NCBI RefSeq assembly: GCF_016917355.1
Contig: NZ_CP070304.1
Coordinates: 434,001 to 498,000 of the forward strand
Length of the DNA: 64,000 nucleotides
Direction of reading: 5' to 3'
From: Glaciimonas sp. PAMC28666
GTDB taxonomy: Bacteria > Pseudomonadota > Gammaproteobacteria > Burkholderiales > Burkholderiaceae_D
Below, one piece after another: positions 31,625-40,125 of this stretch. The translations under genes were made by a program, and so were the position numbers. The stretch's first letter is position 1, and each line of letters opens with the position of its first letter. The notes below the pieces were generated by a model. The model was not told where the DNA came from and did no database searches. It saw nothing but the letters and a program-made list of their open reading frames with translations.

Positions 31625-33985
31625 TTAAAAAGATTTAGTCATCGCCATGTACAGGCCGCGACGTTGTCCAAATTGCGGAGCGCCAACACCTATCCCAGAG
31701 CCGTCGCGAATTTGATAAACGCGGTCAAACACATTGATTGCACTTAGCCGCGTCGTCAGCTTTCCTACCGGAGAATCTTTAAAAATATGGCTAACGCCCA
31801 GATTGACTTCAGTATAAGAAGGCAAATGTTCGGTGTTGGCAAAGCCGCTACGCAACCCACTACCGTACAAAGCGTCAGCACTGTAGGTTGTTCCTCTCCA
31901 AAGATAAGAGACACCGGTTGATGCGGTCATGCTCTGATCATGATCCAGATGAACCCAATGACTGGACACATAATCCAATTCACTCTGTTCAAAATTGTAC
32001 TGGCTTGAGGTTATATTTTTACCCATCGCCGACGAGCGTGCGACATTCAGATACGCGCCGAAATTGTCGTTGCGATAGTTCAGCGTCAGCTCCAGACCGA
32101 CCACCTTCCCTTGCGCATAGTTAAAAGGGGTAAATAGCAAAGCCGAACCAAACTGCCCTTCATCCAGCATATTTTTCACTTTTTTGTAATAACCATCCAA
32201 TCCGATCGTCAGATTTTGCGTCAATTGATGCACCACGCCAAGATCAAAATAATCAGAACTTTCGGCCTGCACCGCATCATTCTGGTTGGTCGCAGCAGCG
32301 TTGGTAGTGCCATTGAAGCTGGCGACAGTCGTCGCGGCGATTAACTCGCTGGTCGGTGGCGTAAAATATTTTGCATAGCCAGCGTGAAAGGTCGTTCGGG
32401 GCGTCATCTGATACACGACTCCGACGCGGGGACTCAACTGGTTGGCCGACACATAGGCGTTCAACCAATCCATGCGGGCGCCGTAATTGACGGTGAACTG
32501 ATCACTCAGCTTCCATTCATCCTGCAAATACACGCCGGTCTGATTAGTCGTTTTTTGACCTTGATCGTTAATCGAGAATGGTTGCGTACCCATTTGATTG
32601 CCGCTGACATCTGCGGTAAACGTGAGTGAATCGTTGCTATTTTTCAGGCTCTCACGGCTATAAGAAATACCAGCGCGCAAGGTGTGACTATCATTGAGCC
32701 GATAGCTTCCATCTGCTTGCAAGCCATTAGCCAACCCGGTACGTAATACTCGCGAGGCGACGCCGGTGTAAAGCAAATCGCCAATCGTATCAGGTTCAAA
32801 CAATACCTTGGTATAGCGGCTAAACGCAGCAACCTGATAGTCTATATCGTTGCCGATAACGCCCTGCAAAGCAAGAATGCCGTATCGATTGGTTTCTCGC
32901 TGACGTTCGTTCAGGTTCGCCGATGGATAATCAGCGAAGCCATCGCGTTGAAAAGTTGCTGTTTCACCTGCCGTATTTGGAATCTGAAAGCGACCGTCCG
33001 AGCTGCCAAGGATCAGACTCACTCGCGTATCTGGATTAATGAGATAAGAGAAGTAACCGAAGCCCTTATTCTGTAAGGTACGATCGTGCAGCGCGGTCGA
33101 AGTACCGGTCGGATTTTCAATACCGAGATTATTTGCGTCAAACGAACCGTTGATGTAATAGCTGAATCCATCATGAGAACCACTCACGTCGCCACTGATC
33201 TGTCGGGTATTATTACTGCCGAACGCGATACCGATATTGCCGCCGTTTTCAATTTGACCGGTTTTGGTGTGGATATCGACGACGCCAGCGGTACGATACC
33301 CATACTGAGCTGGCAACGCACCGGTCAACAAATTCACGTTATCAACGAAACGCGTGTCGAGCGTCTGACCAAATCCAGAAATACTCTCCGGCAACAAAAT
33401 GCCATTCAGGCGATACTGCAAATTGGCATGGTCGCCGCGTACGTGTAATTGCCCATAAGAATCCTGCGCAACTCCCGGTGCGCGCAACAGAACCTGATTA
33501 AACGGCGTATCGTCCCCTTGCGGCAACGCTGCGATATCCTTGCGTCCGATACGATAAATACTGCTGCCAGTTTCAACAGAGATACCGTTCCTCGCACGAT
33601 CAAGGCGTTCGCTCGTGACGACTATCTGCCCCAGAGTTTCAGCAGCGATCAAGGTCATCGAGACCTGTGCGGCAGCCGCTTTTTTCGTTACGATGACTAC
33701 TCCCGTTGCATAGGCTGGCTTATCGACGGCGAGGGCGTAACTACCCGGAACGATATTCACAAATGTAAAATTTCCTTGCTGATCACTAACGGTAGTCGCC
33801 AATGCGTGACCGCTTGTATCCTTCAGATTAATTTGCGCATCCGACAATGGATGGCCAAGAGCATCGTGGACCAGGCCGTTGATGCGTTCGGGAGAAACCG
33901 GCGCAGTCTGTGCAAATACGATAGGCGTAGAAATACCAGTGGAGAGCGCAATCAAGGCGCTCAACCGTAACAAACGAGTTTTCAA
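31625..33985 (-). CDS. TonB-dependent receptor with N-terminal carboxypeptidase-regulatory-like domain
   Basis: The 786-residue product has a signal peptide ending near FAQ (residue 25). A carboxypeptidase-regulatory-like beta-sandwich follows (about 35-115, with GLVHDALGHPLSDAQINLKD). The plug contains GQLHVRGDHANLQYRLNG, and the barrel ends in MTKSF. Receptors with this extra domain are often used for large ligands such as peptides or glycans, but the ligand here is unknown. It is convergent with modC, so a molybdate link is only positional. Its upstream region carries palindromes and direct repeats. Confidence 0.88.
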   Translation of the reverse strand: MKTRLLRLSALIALSTGISTPIVFAQTAPVSPERINGLVHDALGHPLSDAQINLKDTSGHALATTVSDQQGNFTFVNIVPGSYALAVDKPAYATGVVIVTKKAAAAQVSMTLIAAETLGQIVVTSERLDRARNGISVETGSSIYRIGRKDIAALPQGDDTPFNQVLLRAPGVAQDSYGQLHVRGDHANLQYRLNGILLPESISGFGQTLDTRFVDNVNLLTGALPAQYGYRTAGVVDIHTKTGQIENGGNIGIAFGSNNTRQISGDVSGSHDGFSYYINGSFDANNLGIENPTGTSTALHDRTLQNKGFGYFSYLINPDTRVSLILGSSDGRFQIPNTAGETATFQRDGFADYPSANLNERQRETNRYGILALQGVIGNDIDYQVAAFSRYTKVLFEPDTIGDLLYTGVASRVLRTGLANGLQADGSYRLNDSHTLRAGISYSRESLKNSNDSLTFTADVSGNQMGTQPFSINDQGQKTTNQTGVYLQDEWKLSDQFTVNYGARMDWLNAYVSANQLSPRVGVVYQMTPRTTFHAGYAKYFTPPTSELIAATTVASFNGTTNAAATNQNDAVQAESSDYFDLGVVHQLTQNLTIGLDGYYKKVKNMLDEGQFGSALLFTPFNYAQGKVVGLELTLNYRNDNFGAYLNVARSSAMGKNITSSQYNFEQSELDYVSSHWVHLDHDQSMTASTGVSYLWRGTTYSADALYGSGLRSGFANTEHLPSYTEVNLGVSHIFKDSPVGKLTTRLSAINVFDRVYQIRDGSGIGVGAPQFGQRRGLYMAMTKSF

Positions 33986-34242
33986 TCTTAAACTCCGATA
34001 TGGCGAAATAGCGAAACGGTTAAACGAAGCAACCGGGTCTTAGCCTAGCTGTCATCACCGATTTTTTTCAAACCTGGTGAGGAACTGGTGAGGAATTCAT
34101 TGCGCAATCACTGCATAAGTCAGCACTCAAAATAAGCTCAGAAGCGCTTGCGTCATGAGAAAACGCCTAACGGGTTTCCGCGCTTCCTCACCCATGCAAT
34201 GCTGTCTAGTGTAGATGTCTGAGAGGTTTGCATCAACAAAAA

Positions 34243-34279
34243 TGCAACTGAGTTGCAATTTAAATGCAACTCAGTTGCA
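34243..34279. promoter_or_regulatory. Two perfect 15-bp palindromes spaced 22 bp apart
   Basis: TGCAACTGAGTTGCA at 34243-34257 and TGCAACTCAGTTGCA at 34265-34279 are each a perfect dyad around one central base, and each is the reverse complement of the other. Their centres lie 22 bp apart, about two helical turns. They lie in the 513-bp gap between the TonB receptor and the thioesterase gene. This looks like a double operator for a dimeric regulator that I cannot name. Confidence 0.7.
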
Positions 34280-34333
34280 AAATTGATACAACCGACTAAA
34301 TTGATACAACCGACTAAATTGATACAACCGACT
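34280..34333. repeat. Three perfect 18-bp direct repeats
   Basis: AAATTGATACAACCGACT occurs three times in a row, at 34280, 34298 and 34316, directly beside the double palindrome. The periodicity (18 bp) is not a multiple of the helical turn. No replication gene is near, so a plasmid iteron is unlikely. The rest of the 33986-34498 gap, apart from a short ACTGGTGAGGAA-like direct repeat near 34077, shows nothing. Confidence 0.9.
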
Positions 34334-34498
34334 AATTACTTGACTTCCGTCGCGCGCTGGCTGCTCCCCGGCTGCTTAGATGGCTAGGTCAGCGCAAATC
34401 CCGCCATCAAGGCATAATCATTTCCACGCAACGCACTACCTTTCACGAACATTGCGCTACGTATCATTTCTTTCATTAAATTTAGAATAAGGACACCC

Positions 34499-35029
34499 AT
34501 GACTAACCGCGAAGAAACACTGGCGCTTTGGAAGGAACAAGAAACGGGCGTAAGAGCGCGACTAGCGGCACCCGGCGTGGCCACGTTAGCGCAACTGAAA
34601 GAGCGCAGCGGAATGGAATTTCTGCAGGATATCTGGGACGGCAAACTGCCCTCTGTGCTTATTGGTGAGACGCTGGATTTCATTCCGATTGAAGGTGAGC
34701 CGGGACGCATCGTGTTTCAAGGCACGCCAGGACGTAAACACTACAATCCACTTGGTAGCGTCCATGGCGGCTATTTCTGCACACTCCTCGACTCGGCGCT
34801 AGGCTGCACTGTGCACTCGATGCTACCGAAGGGTATGGGGTACACCACACTGGAAATAAAAGTCAATTTACTGCGCCCTCTTACCGAAAAAACCGGCCCG
34901 GTTCGCGCCATTGGGAAAGTGATTCAGGTCGGCAAACAAGTTGGTGTGTCGGAGGCAAATATCGTAGATGTTGACGGCAAAATATACGCGCACGCGACGA
35001 CTACCTGTTTAATTTTTCCGCTCCCCTAA
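34499..35029 (+). CDS. PaaI-family hotdog-fold thioesterase
   Basis: PaaI-type hotdog thioesterases hydrolyse acyl- or aryl-CoA thioesters in the cytoplasm. The 176-residue product has the family helix GSVHGGYFCTLLDSALG with the HGG motif. The strand GYTTLEIKVNLLRP is also present, and the protein ends in CLIFPLP. An N-terminal extension of about 40 residues precedes the domain. A purine-rich AATAAGGA precedes the ATG. It stands alone between the repeat-rich region and the cupredoxin gene, and its substrate is unknown. Confidence 0.82.
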   Translation: MTNREETLALWKEQETGVRARLAAPGVATLAQLKERSGMEFLQDIWDGKLPSVLIGETLDFIPIEGEPGRIVFQGTPGRKHYNPLGSVHGGYFCTLLDSALGCTVHSMLPKGMGYTTLEIKVNLLRPLTEKTGPVRAIGKVIQVGKQVGVSEANIVDVDGKIYAHATTTCLIFPLP

Positions 35030-35171: not shown

Positions 35172-35558
35172 TTAAGTCACCACTAGCACGCCCGTCATGT
35201 CCTCGTGGCCCGAGCCACAAAACAAATCACAATGAAAAACAAATTCGCCCACCTTATCCGGCGTAAAGCGCACGCTTGATTCCTTGCCTGGAAAAATATC
35301 GGTACGAACGCCAAAATCAGGGGCATTGAATCCCATCGGCATATCCAGCGTCGAAAGCGTCAACACCACCGGTACCCCTCGCTTCAACATAATGCGATTC
35401 GGCGCGTAGGTAAATCTGCTAGCGACAACCTTAATCATCACCGCTTTTTCTTGCGCCAACGCAACATTTTTGATGTTGGAGGCAAAAATACTACCCACCC
35501 CTAATTTCATCGCGCCAATCAGAATCCCGCGACGCTCTCGGTTTATGTTCATGATCAT
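35172..35558 (-). CDS. Exported cupredoxin-domain protein (CoxII CuA-like)
   Basis: The 128-residue product has an N-terminal export segment (residues 7-36, RERRG then a hydrophobic core). A cupredoxin fold follows that resembles the copper domain of cytochrome oxidase subunit II. The ligand spacing Cx3Cx3Hx2M is intact at C110, C114, H118 and M121 (CDLFCGSGHEDM). At the position of the first CoxII histidine the protein has M75 (DMPMGFNAPDFG). It begins on the ATGA overlap with the metallophosphoesterase stop, so the two form an operon. It probably binds copper in the periplasm; the role is unknown. Confidence 0.82.
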   Translation of the reverse strand: MIMNINRERRGILIGAMKLGVGSIFASNIKNVALAQEKAVMIKVVASRFTYAPNRIMLKRGVPVVLTLSTLDMPMGFNAPDFGVRTDIFPGKESSVRFTPDKVGEFVFHCDLFCGSGHEDMTGVLVVT

Positions 35559-36454
35559 CCCTTCGATATCGGCAATTCGGTTAAATTAAAAGTGGGATTC
35601 TTTTGCGATGTTGCAACCTCGCGAAAGCCAAGACCGCGATAAGGTTGCGCGCTATCCCACGCCAATGGCGTGCGCTTAAGCTGCGATCCCGGAGCCGGCA
35701 ATGCGAAGATTAGCGATTTGGAAGAATGGTGAGCGATATGTCCAGTCATGTGGTGATTTTCCTGATGAATATGGCCGTAAAATACCGTAACGTTTGCGTA
35801 CGGCATCAATAGCGCAACCGCCTTTTCGCCATCACGCGTAGCCCAATCCCATTGAGGATAAAGATCAAACAGCGGACGATGCGTGAACACGACTATCCTA
35901 GCGTCCGGTGCCAATTTATCCAGGTCCGCTTTCAGCCAGGTTAGTTGCTCTTCTCCAATGCTTGCCGCGGGATCAGAGACATTATCGAGGACGATAAAAT
36001 GCACCCCTTTATGATCGAAGGTGTAATGTGTTTTACCGAAAAGCTCCTGATACGCTACGCCCTGATCCAATCCTGCATCATGTTCACCGGGCATAAAATA
36101 GACTTGTTTTACTTTTAATGCCGACACGATCGTCTTGAACTCTGTCATGCGCTTGCGACGTTCCTGCGGATCGTCTGTGGTATGCGTCAAGTCCCCGGTA
36201 AAGACGATAAAGTCAGGTAATTTCTCAAGCGCATTCACTGCGGCGACGGCTTTAGGTAACGTTCCATGCGCATCCGGATTCGGAGCACCCTCAAAGCCCC
36301 AATGGGAGTCGGACAATTGCACAAAGAAGAAATCCTCGGCAGCATTTGCAGCGCCGTTAGCTGCGTTCGTCCAACCACTCAAACCGGAAGCAAACACTGC
36401 GCCGCCGAGCCCTGCCAGCCTGATAAAACTGCGTCTATTTAAAGTGGTAGTCAT
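35555..36454 (-). CDS. Tat-exported calcineurin-like metallophosphoesterase
   Basis: I start at the ATG at 36454 (MTTTLNRRSFIRLAG), preceded by GAGGAGA; the 299-residue product then opens with a twin-arginine signal NRRSFIRL. The metal-ligand motifs are all visible: LSDSHWGF, FTGDLTHT, MPGEHD, VFTHRPLF and FYGHIHQENH. The substrate cannot be inferred. It is transcribed with the cupredoxin gene and away from the ECF sigma gene, from a promoter that has the same elements as the sigma gene's own. Confidence 0.88.
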   Translation of the reverse strand: MTTTLNRRSFIRLAGLGGAVFASGLSGWTNAANGAANAAEDFFFVQLSDSHWGFEGAPNPDAHGTLPKAVAAVNALEKLPDFIVFTGDLTHTTDDPQERRKRMTEFKTIVSALKVKQVYFMPGEHDAGLDQGVAYQELFGKTHYTFDHKGVHFIVLDNVSDPAASIGEEQLTWLKADLDKLAPDARIVVFTHRPLFDLYPQWDWATRDGEKAVALLMPYANVTVFYGHIHQENHHMTGHIAHHSSKSLIFALPAPGSQLKRTPLAWDSAQPYRGLGFREVATSQKNPTFNLTELPISKG

Positions 36455-36507: not shown

Positions 36508-36534
36508 ATACCGACATCAGATAAAATTTATTCC
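36508..36534 (-). promoter_or_regulatory. Predicted ECF promoter for the metallophosphoesterase-cupredoxin operon
   Basis: On the minus strand GGAATA (36534-36529) is followed after exactly 15 bp by CGGTAT (36513-36508). The -10 element lies 53 bp before the start codon. The -35 resembles the GGAA-type element of many ECF promoters. The same two hexamers with the same spacing occur facing the other way at 36576-36602. Confidence 0.7.
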
Positions 36535-36575
36535 ACGATGATTAAAAATTAATCCAAATATTTTTTACTATTCCG

Positions 36576-36602
36576 GGAATAAAATCAGAACTCGAGCGGT
36601 AT
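36576..36602 (+). promoter_or_regulatory. Predicted ECF promoter for the sigma/anti-sigma operon
   Basis: GGAATA (36576-36581) is followed after exactly 15 bp by CGGTAT (36597-36602), 27 bp before the sigma start codon. The copy is identical in both hexamers and spacing to the divergent one at 36508-36534, while the spacer bases differ. This supports autoregulation by the encoded sigma factor. Confidence 0.7.
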
Positions 36603-36629: not shown

Positions 36630-37274
36630 ATGATGCACTCGACCAAAGAAAACCGCTTCCAGGCCATCGTTATGCCGCATTTGAATTCGGCGTTTAACCT
36701 GGCCCGTTGGCTCACGCGCAACGGACCGGATGCTGAAGATGTTGTGCAAGAAGCGTATTGTCGTGCGTTTACTTTTTTTGACAGCTTCTATGGGGAAGAT
36801 GGACGTGCGTGGTTGTTGACCATCGTGCGAAATACGTTCTACACCTGGCATCAGCGAAATCAAACGCAAAATACCGAATTTGATGAGCAGTTTCACAGTC
36901 CCCACGGAGAGAGCGTTGCCGTCAATGACAAATCGGACAATAATCCGGAAAGTATCCTGTTGCAAAAGGATAGTCAGCAGCAACTATTACAGGCGCTCCA
37001 AACGCTACCGTTGGCATTTCGCGAAGCAATGGTGTTACGAGAACTGGAAGAACTCTCCTACAAGCAAATTGCCGCGATCATCGGAATCCCGGTGGGTACC
37101 GTCATGTCGCGTTTGGGACGCGGTCGTGAATTACTTCAAAAACAGCTGCTAGAGGCGCAAAAACCGAATGATACGTTACGGAACACTACCGTTCGCGATG
37201 GATATTCAGCGGCATCGGTGCCATCTGCACCCCCTACGGAGCCAGCAGCGACATCAATGCAGCGGGAGATATGA
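36630..37274 (+). CDS. ECF-type RNA polymerase sigma factor
   Basis: The 214-residue product is a two-domain extracytoplasmic-function sigma factor. Region 2 has DAEDVVQEAYCRAFTFFDSF with a polymerase-binding helix. Region 4 has LPLAFREAMVLRELEELSY and the recognition helix IAAIIGIPVGTVMSRLGRGR. A Pro/Ala/Ser-rich tail of about 35 residues follows region 4. An AGGA ribosome site precedes the start; the second ATG three bases on is an alternative. Its stop overlaps the start of the anti-sigma gene, so their amounts are probably coupled. Confidence 0.93.
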   Translation: MMHSTKENRFQAIVMPHLNSAFNLARWLTRNGPDAEDVVQEAYCRAFTFFDSFYGEDGRAWLLTIVRNTFYTWHQRNQTQNTEFDEQFHSPHGESVAVNDKSDNNPESILLQKDSQQQLLQALQTLPLAFREAMVLRELEELSYKQIAAIIGIPVGTVMSRLGRGRELLQKQLLEAQKPNDTLRNTTVRDGYSAASVPSAPPTEPAATSMQREI

Positions 37275-38164
37275 TGGAACATGACGAAGTACTTGAACTC
37301 TTACCCGCCTACGTCGATCAGGAACTGAGCGTGTCAGAGACAATACAGATCGAGCGGCATTTGAATAACTGCATCGAATGTCAGCAAGATTACGTCCAGC
37401 AAAGCCAACTCAGTGCTCAGCTGAAAGCACCTGCATTTCGCTTTGAAGCACCGGCTGGCCTGGCGCAACGCATCAACGAAGCGTTGCCTCGGGCGGTCCT
37501 ACCTGGAGCGGTCCTACCTGAAGCGGTCCTACCTGAAGCGGTCTTACCTATAGCGGCCCTACCTGAAGCGGCCCTACCGAAAAAGCAGTCAAACCTTTCT
37601 GCAAGAACCTCCAGGTGGTCGCACCTTGTAGAGAAGTCAGGCTGGCGTTTTGACCGGTTCCATCTGGGCGCATTAATGGCGACCTTACTCGCTGTGCTGT
37701 GGAGTATTGGCATTTTTCTTTCTGTACCCAACGATCAGGATCGACTGACCGATGAGGTCATCGCAAACCACGTACGCTCCCTTCAGGTAGATCATTTATC
37801 CGATGTCGTCTCCACCGATCGCCACACCGTTAAACCCTGGTTCAACGGCAAGCTCAACTTTTCCCCGCCCGTGATTGAACTCGCACCACAAGGCTTCCCG
37901 TTGATCGGTGGACGGCTTGACTATGTTAATGGCCACCCGGTTGCTGCGTTGATTTACCGTCGCCAGCTGCACCCAATTAATTTGTACGTTTGGCCTACTG
38001 GCAGTCACAACACCTCATCGTCCATACTCACCCGGCAAGGCTATCAAGTCGCGCACTGGACCAGCGGGGACATGACGTATTGGGCAGTCTCGGACGTCGC
38101 GGCGGAAGATCTAACCACCTTTGAATCACTATTGCGGCAGCAGATTAAAGAGGTTTTGCATTAG
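37271..38164 (+). CDS. Zinc-type anti-sigma factor, membrane-anchored
   Basis: The 297-residue product starts with an anti-sigma domain whose zinc motif HxxxCxxC is H30, C34 and C37 (IERHLNNCIECQQ). A pentapeptide repeat region (about residues 75-104) follows, then a single helix near 135-155 (LGALMATLLAVLWSIGIFLSV), then a periplasmic domain. It should hold the upstream sigma factor at the inner membrane until a signal arrives. The periplasmic part has YRRQLHPINLYVWP and GYQVAHWTSGDMTYWAVSD, a pattern I have seen in transmembrane anti-sigma regulators. Confidence 0.88.
   Translation: MMEHDEVLELLPAYVDQELSVSETIQIERHLNNCIECQQDYVQQSQLSAQLKAPAFRFEAPAGLAQRINEALPRAVLPGAVLPEAVLPEAVLPIAALPEAALPKKQSNLSARTSRWSHLVEKSGWRFDRFHLGALMATLLAVLWSIGIFLSVPNDQDRLTDEVIANHVRSLQVDHLSDVVSTDRHTVKPWFNGKLNFSPPVIELAPQGFPLIGGRLDYVNGHPVAALIYRRQLHPINLYVWPTGSHNTSSSILTRQGYQVAHWTSGDMTYWAVSDVAAEDLTTFESLLRQQIKEVLH
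37493..37582 (+). repeat. Six 15-bp in-frame tandem repeats in the anti-sigma gene
   Basis: The unit GCGGTCCTACCTGAA, with minor variants, repeats six times and encodes the pentapeptide AVLPE/AALPE between the zinc domain and the membrane helix. Two central units are identical, showing recent slippage. Copy-number change would keep the frame and change linker length. Confidence 0.92.
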
Positions 38165-38509: not shown

Positions 38510-39124
38510 TTAAAAATCATTATTTTCATAGACTAAATCGCTGATGCTAAAAGTGATGAGATAACGCACTTCATTAGGTTTTTCATCAATCCAGAAGCAA
38601 CGAATATTGAGAAGAATCTGGTATTTGTCGCCAGCCTGCCAATAACTTGATGGGTCTGAGCATTGTCCTATTGCTGAACGCATTTTTTCGGTTTTCTCAA
38701 ATGGCGGATCAGTATCCACATTGAATGGAAGCCAACCACCTTTGCGGAACTGATCCTGCAAATCGAAGACGATGGTTAGCGCCTTATCAAGTGAAAGTAT
38801 TTTCACCTGCGGTGATATTCTTACGGTTGCGACAGATCCATTTTCGTCATAGCTAACTGACAGAAATTTCGCTGCAGGTGTAATGAATCCGTACTGTGAA
38901 TCAACAAAACGCAAGACCGAGGGCCGGGTAACAAATCCACCCCAATAGTGTCCAGGTTCAGAGGGAGACAAGGTATTTCCCAATCGCGCTTTTTCATAAG
39001 ATCCACCAATGGACACAGCCACCACATCGTATGGTCTGATCGCGATGTAAGCTGCATAGATAATGGCTATCCCTATGACGACTAAAACTACGCGCCATCG
39101 CCTGCTAATATTTTTTAGTGTCAT
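38510..39124 (-). CDS. Small membrane-anchored protein, candidate T6SS immunity or accessory protein
   Basis: I do not recognise the family. The 204-residue product has one N-terminal helix (about residues 11-29) and then a soluble domain, presumably periplasmic, that contains two cysteines (in IGQCSDPSS and LNIRCFWID). It begins 2 bp after the end of the DUF2515-like gene at the far end of the T6SS operon, and a decayed copy lies directly downstream. This position, anchoring and duplication history fit an immunity protein for a periplasm-acting effector, but that is inference. Confidence 0.7.
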   Translation of the reverse strand: MTLKNISRRWRVVLVVIGIAIIYAAYIAIRPYDVVAVSIGGSYEKARLGNTLSPSEPGHYWGGFVTRPSVLRFVDSQYGFITPAAKFLSVSYDENGSVATVRISPQVKILSLDKALTIVFDLQDQFRKGGWLPFNVDTDPPFEKTEKMRSAIGQCSDPSSYWQAGDKYQILLNIRCFWIDEKPNEVRYLITFSISDLVYENNDF

Positions 39125-39126
39125 CG

Positions 39127-40125
39127 TCAGCCTCTGCCAGCAATAACATATAGGGAGTTTTCAACGAAAAGACCCTCTTGGGGATCCTGCAATAGGGTAT
39201 TGAATCTATCCGCAGCCCGCATCACAAACTTCATCCGTTGGACCGGGTCGGCAAGATTTGCCAGAGGCTGATTACTAAACGTTTCTTTTCGCGCGCTTCT
39301 TCCTTCAACCGAGCATTCGCTTGCTAGCGTCAACTGAATTTCCTTCGCCGTTCCACTGGGGAAACTCACCACCCACGAGAAATGATTCGCACGCATCAAG
39401 ATGGCAAAGTACCGGTCGTCATACAAGGCAGGTTGTAAAATGTTGTTCTGCTCATGCCAGGCCAACCTTTCAAGCCCTCGTACAATATTTCCGGCGTCTA
39501 TCGCCTCAAATCCTTGAGTGACCTCAGGCCACGGAAAGCCAAATTTGACCTCGCGAGCAATTGGCCATAACACCGACCCATTCAGTTTTTCCCTCTTTTC
39601 CAAACAATGCTTGAATCGCCCTAATCCAAATGCTTTGTAAAACATGTGTAACGGCCAGATATCCAAAAACAGGGCCATGTTGCCTTTGGCGAGCATTCTG
39701 TAAGCAACGTCAGAAGCATCCCCAGCGCCCTGATCGACCATCGGCATGCGAGGGGAGGCAAAAGGGGATAACCGCTCTAGCGGAAAACTTTGCTTTCCCC
39801 AGCTCTGGTAGCGATCACGTTGTTGATTCGATTTTTGCATGATCTCTGCCGCATTGAGCAAACCGCAACCCACCTGCTTCGAAGCGAATGCTGCAAGCCC
39901 TGCCCACTGGAAACGACGGTCATCTATCCATAGTTGTGCGTAAGCTGCATTAATACGCCGGTTAATCGCGATCGGATCACCATTCCCGACTATCGCTTCA
40001 GCTTTCCTCTGATAGAAACGCCAACAAGTTTCGCAGTCCTGTCTATCATCCTCAACGCGTTGCGCCGCTTGTTCTTGCCAATCTGGATAACAAGTGTCAC
40101 ATTGAAGATCTTCACATTTTTCCAT
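39127..40125 (-). CDS. DUF2515-like protein, candidate T6SS effector or accessory
   Basis: The 332-residue soluble product has no signal peptide or helix. It opens with cysteine pairs (C4, C9, C12 and the CETC pair near 33-36) that could bind zinc. The central part, with INAAYAQLWIDDRRFQWAGLAAFASKQVG and NMALFLDIWPLHMFYKAFG, resembles DUF2515 proteins such as B. subtilis YppC, though I am not certain. It follows tssJ by 87 bp on the same strand and is paired with the small membrane gene. No enzymatic motif is evident. Confidence 0.6.
   Translation of the reverse strand: MEKCEDLQCDTCYPDWQEQAAQRVEDDRQDCETCWRFYQRKAEAIVGNGDPIAINRRINAAYAQLWIDDRRFQWAGLAAFASKQVGCGLLNAAEIMQKSNQQRDRYQSWGKQSFPLERLSPFASPRMPMVDQGAGDASDVAYRMLAKGNMALFLDIWPLHMFYKAFGLGRFKHCLEKREKLNGSVLWPIAREVKFGFPWPEVTQGFEAIDAGNIVRGLERLAWHEQNNILQPALYDDRYFAILMRANHFSWVVSFPSGTAKEIQLTLASECSVEGRSARKETFSNQPLANLADPVQRMKFVMRAADRFNTLLQDPQEGLFVENSLYVIAGRG

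What the first reader, a model, noticed from the sequence alone, without database searches (positions are those of the whole stretch)
36508..36602. Divergent identical ECF promoters link a sigma factor to a metallophosphoesterase-cupredoxin operon
GGAATA-N15-CGGTAT occurs twice in one intergenic region, once per strand, each properly placed in front of a gene start (53 bp and 27 bp). Spacer bases differ while both hexamers and the spacing agree exactly. The sigma factor gene and its zinc-type anti-sigma lie on one side; a Tat-exported phosphoesterase and a copper-fold protein lie on the other. This defines a compact, apparently undescribed regulon with an envelope or copper theme.
Basis: partly seen in the sequence, partly recalled or inferred. 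Interest (0 to 1): 0.75.

Follow-up and report, generated by a model that had tools for sequence, protein, structure and literature searches.

The report
Stress switch for a copper-linked phosphoesterase
Two back-to-back copies of one promoter let a bacterial stress regulator switch on both itself and a pair of exported metal proteins; the arrangement recurs in many related bacteria, and what the exported pair does is still an open question.

Summary
GGAATA-N15-CGGTAT occurs exactly twice in the 5.23-Mb genome, both times here, pointing apart. Of 80 related loci, 78 keep all four genes and 74 the divergent layout; of those 74, 60 keep the site before the phosphoesterase, 57 before sigma and 49 both (shuffle means 0.6 and 0.3). 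In 5 of 5 colinear loci only the operon head carries it. In three genomes whose phosphoesterase lies on another contig than the sigma match, its promoter still has the site. This fits a dedicated, self-amplifying ECF sigma/anti-sigma switch with a very small regulon.

The Tat-signal phosphoesterase keeps its metal ligands but has Glu for the Asn of GNH(D/E) in 114 of 114 copies (102 of 102 non-redundant). The cupredoxin is CuA-like, with Met for its first His ligand in 67 of 97. One Gemmatimonadota record fuses phosphoesterase and cupredoxin; 6 of 80 loci add a cytochrome c. I infer a redox-linked periplasmic metalloenzyme. Substrate, signal and redox activity are untested. In more distant loci the site was mostly not found.

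The parts
36508..36534 (-). ECF-type promoter before the phosphoesterase-cupredoxin operon: -35 GGAATA (36534-36529), N15, -10 CGGTAT (36513-36508)
   Evidence: conserved in 60 of 74 divergent relatives
36576..36602 (+). ECF-type promoter before the sigma/anti-sigma operon: -35 GGAATA (36576-36581), N15, -10 CGGTAT (36597-36602)
   Evidence: conserved in 57 of 74 divergent relatives
36630..37274 (+). ECF sigma factor gene, 214 aa (a second ATG follows at 36633)
   Evidence: Sigma70_r2 and Sigma70_r4_2 over Pfam cut-off; NCBIfam PRK12533 215.5 bits, under its 248 cut-off
37271..38164 (+). membrane anti-sigma factor, 297 aa: zf-HC2 domain, one membrane helix, periplasmic domain; start overlaps the sigma stop (ATGA)
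   Evidence: zf-HC2; helix 129-151 and six-stranded C-terminal domain in the model, pLDDT 84; conserved in relatives
35555..36454 (-). phosphoesterase-fold protein, 299 aa, twin-arginine signal, GEHD instead of GNH(D/E)
   Evidence: PF00149, TIGR01409 20 bits against a cut-off of 16.7, metal-ligand columns, GpdQ/Rv0805-like fold
35172..35558 (-). CuA-like cupredoxin, 128 aa, C110-x3-C114-x3-H118-x2-M121 with Met75 at the first His position; start overlaps the phosphoesterase stop (ATGA)
   Evidence: Cupredoxin_1 and COX2; best PDB matches Thermus CuA 2lln and 2cua, E 3e-14; overlap

Best explanation
A dedicated ECF sigma/anti-sigma switch. At rest the membrane anti-sigma factor holds the sigma factor. 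A periplasmic signal releases it, and the holoenzyme starts from two identical divergent promoters: one raises sigma and anti-sigma (positive feedback plus reset), the other a small operon for two exported metalloproteins, a GEHD-type phosphoesterase-fold enzyme and a CuA-like cupredoxin, which I infer work together as a redox-linked periplasmic unit. Shown by comparison: the gene set, the paired promoters, their fixed geometry, and retention of the site when the genes are rearranged or separated. Inferred: sequestration and release, that these sites are start sites of this sigma, and the joint redox role. Unknown: signal, substrate, metals.
For: Gene set: 78 of 80 loci have all four genes; 74 divergent, 5 colinear, 1 other. 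Promoters: in 74 divergent loci the N15 site at 10/12 or better is in 60 (phosphoesterase side), 57 (sigma side), 49 (both); shuffles mean 0.6 (max 3) and 0.3 (max 1); spacers 11-14 and 16-20 give at most 8. Colinear loci: site before the phosphoesterase in 5 of 5, before sigma in 0 of 5. Separated genes: L161 12/12, L162 10/12, L163 10/12 before the phosphoesterase; sigma genes of two of those genomes, L029 11/12 and L017 10/12. Distance between the two -35 boxes varies from 4 to 506 bp, n=64, while the spacer is fixed. Partnership: cupredoxin beside the phosphoesterase in 17 of 18 phylum loci; fused in Gemmatirosa; cytochrome c gene upstream in 6 of 80 loci.
Against: No expression data. The 80 loci were the best 80 of 465, chosen by the phosphoesterase, mostly Betaproteobacteria and not independent. 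25 of 74 lack one or both sites at the threshold; 20 of 64 sigma-side sites fit GAGTCT better, a variant I added after seeing the data. In more distant loci the site was mostly not found: L142, L143, L144, L151-L155, L157 and L159 gave no N15 site of 10/12 on the sides tested (several phosphoesterase starts there were not called). Sigma loci without the phosphoesterase within 1.5 kb exist: 9 of 30. L149 has the phosphoesterase without the cupredoxin. In L100 and L106 a 12/12 site lies between cytochrome and phosphoesterase genes, so the cytochrome is not always in the same transcript.
Confidence: 0.8

Rival explanations
1. Same switch, but the output is ordinary: the phosphoesterase is a periplasmic phosphodiesterase of the GpdQ/Rv0805 kind and the cupredoxin a copper carrier or store.
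For: The model matches GpdQ and Rv0805 best; every other dinuclear-site ligand is kept.
Against: The Asn-to-Glu change is in 114 of 114, while three other phosphoesterases of this genome read GNHE, GNHD and GNRD (a fourth was not read). A CuA-like centre and a cytochrome c neighbour fit electron transfer better than storage. No assay either way.
Confidence: 0.4
2. The switch answers sulfite or another reactive sulfur species, as ECF26 factors RpoE1 and RpoE4 of Sinorhizobium meliloti do.
For: Published RpoE1/RpoE4 promoters read GGAATA-N15-(G/T/C)(T/C)GTCT in three of six listed (strings from the PMC6180224 table passage; read), the same -35 and spacer as here; that regulon holds a cupredoxin, azu2, with sorT. 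One Mycobacteroides plasmid has a sulfite-oxidase-family gene beside its sigma-cupredoxin-phosphoesterase cluster.
Against: No sulfite oxidase was sought or seen in the main loci. RpoE6, a documented ECF26 member, is only 35% identical over 137 aa, and its anti-sigma gave no match at E 1; the -10 differs (CGGTAT). Two ECF26 factors of S. meliloti are reported not to answer sulfite.
Confidence: 0.25
3. The facing GGGAATAA boxes are an inverted-repeat operator for a separate dimeric regulator, not two -35 elements.
For: They form an inverted repeat in most divergent loci.
Against: Arm distance varies from 4 to 506 bp while arm-to-CGGTAT distance is fixed; colinear and separated genes keep one arm with its -10.
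Confidence: 0.03
4. The double match is chance.
For: The backward control pattern also occurs once in the genome; single-mismatch hits elsewhere are mostly background.
Against: Conservation in 5 of 5 genus genomes and across 74 divergent loci against shuffles.
Confidence: 0.01

Closest known systems
ECF26 circuits RpoE1-EcfR1 and RpoE4-EcfR4 of Sinorhizobium meliloti (sulfite response)
   Same: Membrane anti-sigma encoded next to the sigma, very small self-including regulon, -35 GGAATA with N15 spacer in three listed promoters, a cupredoxin among the targets (passages of PMC3511301, PMC6527743, PMC6180224).
   Different: -10 is CGGTAT rather than xxGTCT; targets are a phosphoesterase and a CuA-like protein, not sorT; similarity to RpoE6 no better than to a general ECF paralogue.
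SigM regulon member UpsH (YpbG) of Bacillus subtilis
   Same: A phosphoesterase-like protein under an ECF sigma with anti-sigma, tied to the envelope (abstract of PMC11898649).
   Different: No cupredoxin partner is mentioned in the abstract; sequences not compared.
GpdQ, Rv0805 and purple acid phosphatases
   Same: Fold and dinuclear-site ligands.
   Different: Glu at the Asn ligand position, Tat signal, cupredoxin partner.
CuA centre of cytochrome oxidase subunit II and nitrous-oxide reductase
   Same: C-x3-C-x3-H-x2-M and overall sequence.
   Different: Stand-alone exported protein; Met for the first His in 67 of 97.
RseB/MucB periplasmic stress sensors
   Same: Foldseek ranks them 1 to 10 for the anti-sigma model, best E 6.7e-4.
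   Different: TM-scores only 0.15-0.25; profile comparison weak (E 0.008, probability 5%); here the domain is part of the anti-sigma itself.
CorE copper-dependent ECF sigma factors
   Same: An ECF sigma with a copper link (passages of PMC10141476).
   Different: CorE is regulated by a Cys-rich C-terminal extension, not an anti-sigma.

Membership tests
ECF sigma factor | regions 2 and 4, no region 1.1 or 3 | tested here: met
   Sigma70_r2 and Sigma70_r4_2 over cut-off, nothing else in 214 aa apart from overlapping region-4/HTH hits
Class I zinc anti-sigma factor | Hx3Cx2C in an N-terminal domain, encoded next to the sigma | tested here: met
   zf-HC2 over cut-off; H30, C34, C37 at 90% or more of 16; some relatives, such as L022, lack the motif
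Class I zinc anti-sigma factor | binds and silences the sigma | not testable with these tools
   needs two-hybrid or deletion
ECF26 group | sequence placement in the group | tested here: inconclusive
   35% over 137 aa to RpoE6, own general ECF paralogue 34%; no group model available
ECF26 group | target promoter GGAAT...CGTC | tested here: inconclusive
   -35 and N15 agree with three of six listed promoters, -10 differs; GAGTCT-like -10 on 20 of 64 sigma sides
Dinuclear metallophosphoesterase | DxH, GDxx, GNH(D/E), H, GHxH ligands | tested here: not met
   all but one: Asn is Glu in 114 of 114
Dinuclear metallophosphoesterase | fold | tested here: met
   model pLDDT 81.4, pTM 0.82; GpdQ TM 0.72, E 1.6e-15
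CuA copper centre | two Cys, two His, one Met ligand | tested here: not met
   C110, C114, H118, M121 present; first His is Met75 in the window, His in 30 of 97 relatives
CuA copper centre | binds two copper ions | not testable with these tools
   needs spectroscopy

The most novel reading that the evidence does not exclude
A phosphoesterase fold turned into a redox enzyme: the extra carboxylate (Glu124) tunes the dinuclear metal site for redox chemistry, and a CuA-like or blue-copper cupredoxin, sometimes with cytochrome c and once fused, carries its electrons. The ECF switch would then be a periplasmic redox-stress response with its own enzyme.
Probability: 0.3. Interest if true: 0.88.

Novelty: new variant of a known kind. 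Interest (0 to 1): 0.63.

Why it matters
A conserved stress circuit with only two target operons is unusually easy to dissect: delete one gene, read two promoters. It drives a protein pair whose function appears unrecorded, found here in Pseudomonadota, Gemmatimonadota and Actinomycetota, with a constant change at a catalytic metal ligand and a natural CuA ligand swap. If the phosphoesterase exchanges electrons with the cupredoxin, a large hydrolase superfamily gains a redox branch.

Tried and rejected
Chance and operator readings of the double site were tested and rejected. A wider regulon in the own genome was sought: 23 further single-mismatch sites, none scoring like the pair and most inside open frames. 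A copper-detoxification link to CorE or to Cupriavidus ECF factors gave nothing on these genes (passages). An ECF16/hypochlorite parallel (Brucella paper, passages) was dropped: that anti-sigma is of another type. RseB ancestry of the anti-sigma domain is left as weak. A Pfam search of relatives' anti-sigma proteins at E 1 found zf-HC2 and one weak deaminase hit; PHROGs had nothing for the anti-sigma. The TonB receptor and thioesterase genes nearby recur only in the nearest Glaciimonas loci (both in L033, receptor in L034) and are not part of the system. A neighbour survey found no other widespread partner: the largest cluster (11 loci, an ABC ATPase) lies 4-6 kb away.

Caveats on counts: 114 phosphoesterases and 98 cupredoxins include near-identical records; at 95% identity 102 and 89 remain. 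Two duplicate loci (L146, L147) were dropped before counting, and genes with stops in the matched stretch were not called.

Full report
Observation. They are the only exact matches in the 5.23-Mb genome; the pattern read backwards has one. At one mismatch the genome has 25 against 12 for the control, so a search by consensus alone would mislead; a matrix from 124 homologous sites separates the pair (27.4, 24.1) from the rest (20.9 and below).

Genes. Sigma factor (Sigma70_r2, r4_2), zf-HC2 membrane protein, Metallophos protein with a Tat signal, and Cupredoxin_1/COX2 protein. Each operon has an ATGA stop-start overlap, which suggests translational coupling (inference).

Conservation of the gene set. 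In 300 genomes of the order, 30 sigma loci were fetched (L003-L032): 21 have a phosphoesterase homologue and 18 a CuA-like cupredoxin within the fetched flank. A scan of one genome per species with the phosphoesterase profile gave 465 relatives, of which the best 80 were kept; 78 of 80 have all four genes, the misses being L046 (contig ends) and L047 (no cupredoxin at the cut-off). 74 are divergent, 5 colinear, 1 other. In 398 genomes of the phylum 18 have the phosphoesterase at E 1e-30; 17 of these 18 have a cupredoxin and 15 a sigma gene beside it.

Conservation of the promoters. In the 74 divergent loci 60, 57 and 49 keep the site on the phosphoesterase side, sigma side and both. The best score fell at a spacer of 15 in 68 of 80 phosphoesterase sides and 58 of 80 sigma sides under a looser threshold. 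All five genus genomes have the facing pair. In the 5 colinear loci only the operon head has the site, as expected if one promoter now serves all four genes. In three genomes the phosphoesterase-cupredoxin pair was found on another contig than the sigma match and still carries the site (L161 12/12, L162 and L163 10/12); the sigma genes L029 and L017 of two of them carry it too; the third sigma gene, a weak match, was not inspected. Against this, ten more distant loci gave no N15 site at 10/12 on the sides tested, so the motif is not universal.

The phosphoesterase. Ligand columns D49, H51, D88, H192, H228 and H230 are invariant in 114 copies, and position 124, Asn in GNH(D/E), is Glu in all 114; H125 is Asn in one (L088); both arginines of the Tat motif are invariant. 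At 95% identity 102 remain, with the same result. Three of the four other PF00149 proteins of this genome read GNHE, GNHD and GNRD; one was not read. The model resembles GpdQ and Rv0805; the alignment to Rv0805 puts Glu124 on its GNHD Asn, N97 by the PDB titles of its mutants. Tat export suits a cofactor loaded in the cytoplasm (general knowledge).

The cupredoxin. It aligns best with Thermus CuA. C110, C114 and H118 are present in 94 of 94 copies that reach them, M121 in 92 of 95; the first His is Met in 67 and His in 30 of 97. Relatives of the more distant phosphoesterase type have blue-copper cupredoxins instead.

Signs that the pair works together. Adjacent genes in nearly all loci; a single 476-codon frame with both domains in Gemmatirosa, about 420 aa from the likelier start, in an unannotated record; a class I cytochrome c gene upstream in 6 of 80 loci, all of the His-type. 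ECF-like sites precede the cytochrome in 3 of 6; in two loci a 12/12 site lies after it. On a Mycobacteroides plasmid the place of the anti-sigma is taken by a Rieske-domain protein, and a sulfite-oxidase-family gene lies upstream; that this Rieske protein is an anti-sigma is not shown.

The anti-sigma. The model (pLDDT 84.2, pTM 0.57) has cytoplasmic helices, a membrane helix and a six-stranded periplasmic domain. Foldseek ranks RseB and MucB first (best E 6.7e-4) but with TM-scores near 0.2, and profile comparison is weak. It is a hint at the kind of sensor, no more.

Relation to known ECF groups. The -35 and spacer equal three of six listed RpoE1/RpoE4-type promoters of S. meliloti, whose regulon answers sulfite and includes a cupredoxin (passages). 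Similarity to RpoE6 does not exceed that to a general ECF paralogue. I therefore say that it works like an ECF26 circuit and leave membership open.

Verdict. A real, conserved, very small sigma-factor regulon; regulatory part well supported by comparison, output function open and interesting.

Noticed in passing
window 37483-37590: The anti-sigma linker before the membrane helix holds a run of near-identical 15-bp units (repeating LPxAV/LPEA), not seen in the aligned relatives; it could vary in length between strains.
   Followed up: no
window 34240-34340: Inverted ATGCAACT(G/C)AGTTGCA repeats and a direct GATACAACCGACTAAATT repeat upstream of the thioesterase gene.
   Followed up: no
L170 7502-10241: Mycobacteroides plasmid cluster: sigma, membrane Rieske-domain protein in the anti-sigma position, blue-copper cupredoxin, GEHD phosphoesterase; a possible iron-sulfur-sensing anti-sigma factor.
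   Followed up: partly
L142 1578-3008: Phosphoesterase and cupredoxin in one reading frame in Gemmatirosa, divergent from sigma and anti-sigma; GGGAATA boxes face each other there too but without the -10.
   Followed up: partly
window 31625-33985 and 34499-35029: TonB-dependent receptor with a CarboxypepD_reg domain and a hotdog thioesterase beside the operon; both recur in L033, the receptor in L034.
   Followed up: partly
L149 1501-2550: Phosphoesterase of the main type followed by a periplasmic repeat-type protein instead of the cupredoxin.
   Followed up: no
window 38510-40125: Two adjacent minus-strand genes downstream of the anti-sigma; the first had no Pfam or NCBIfam match, the second was not searched.
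   Followed up: no
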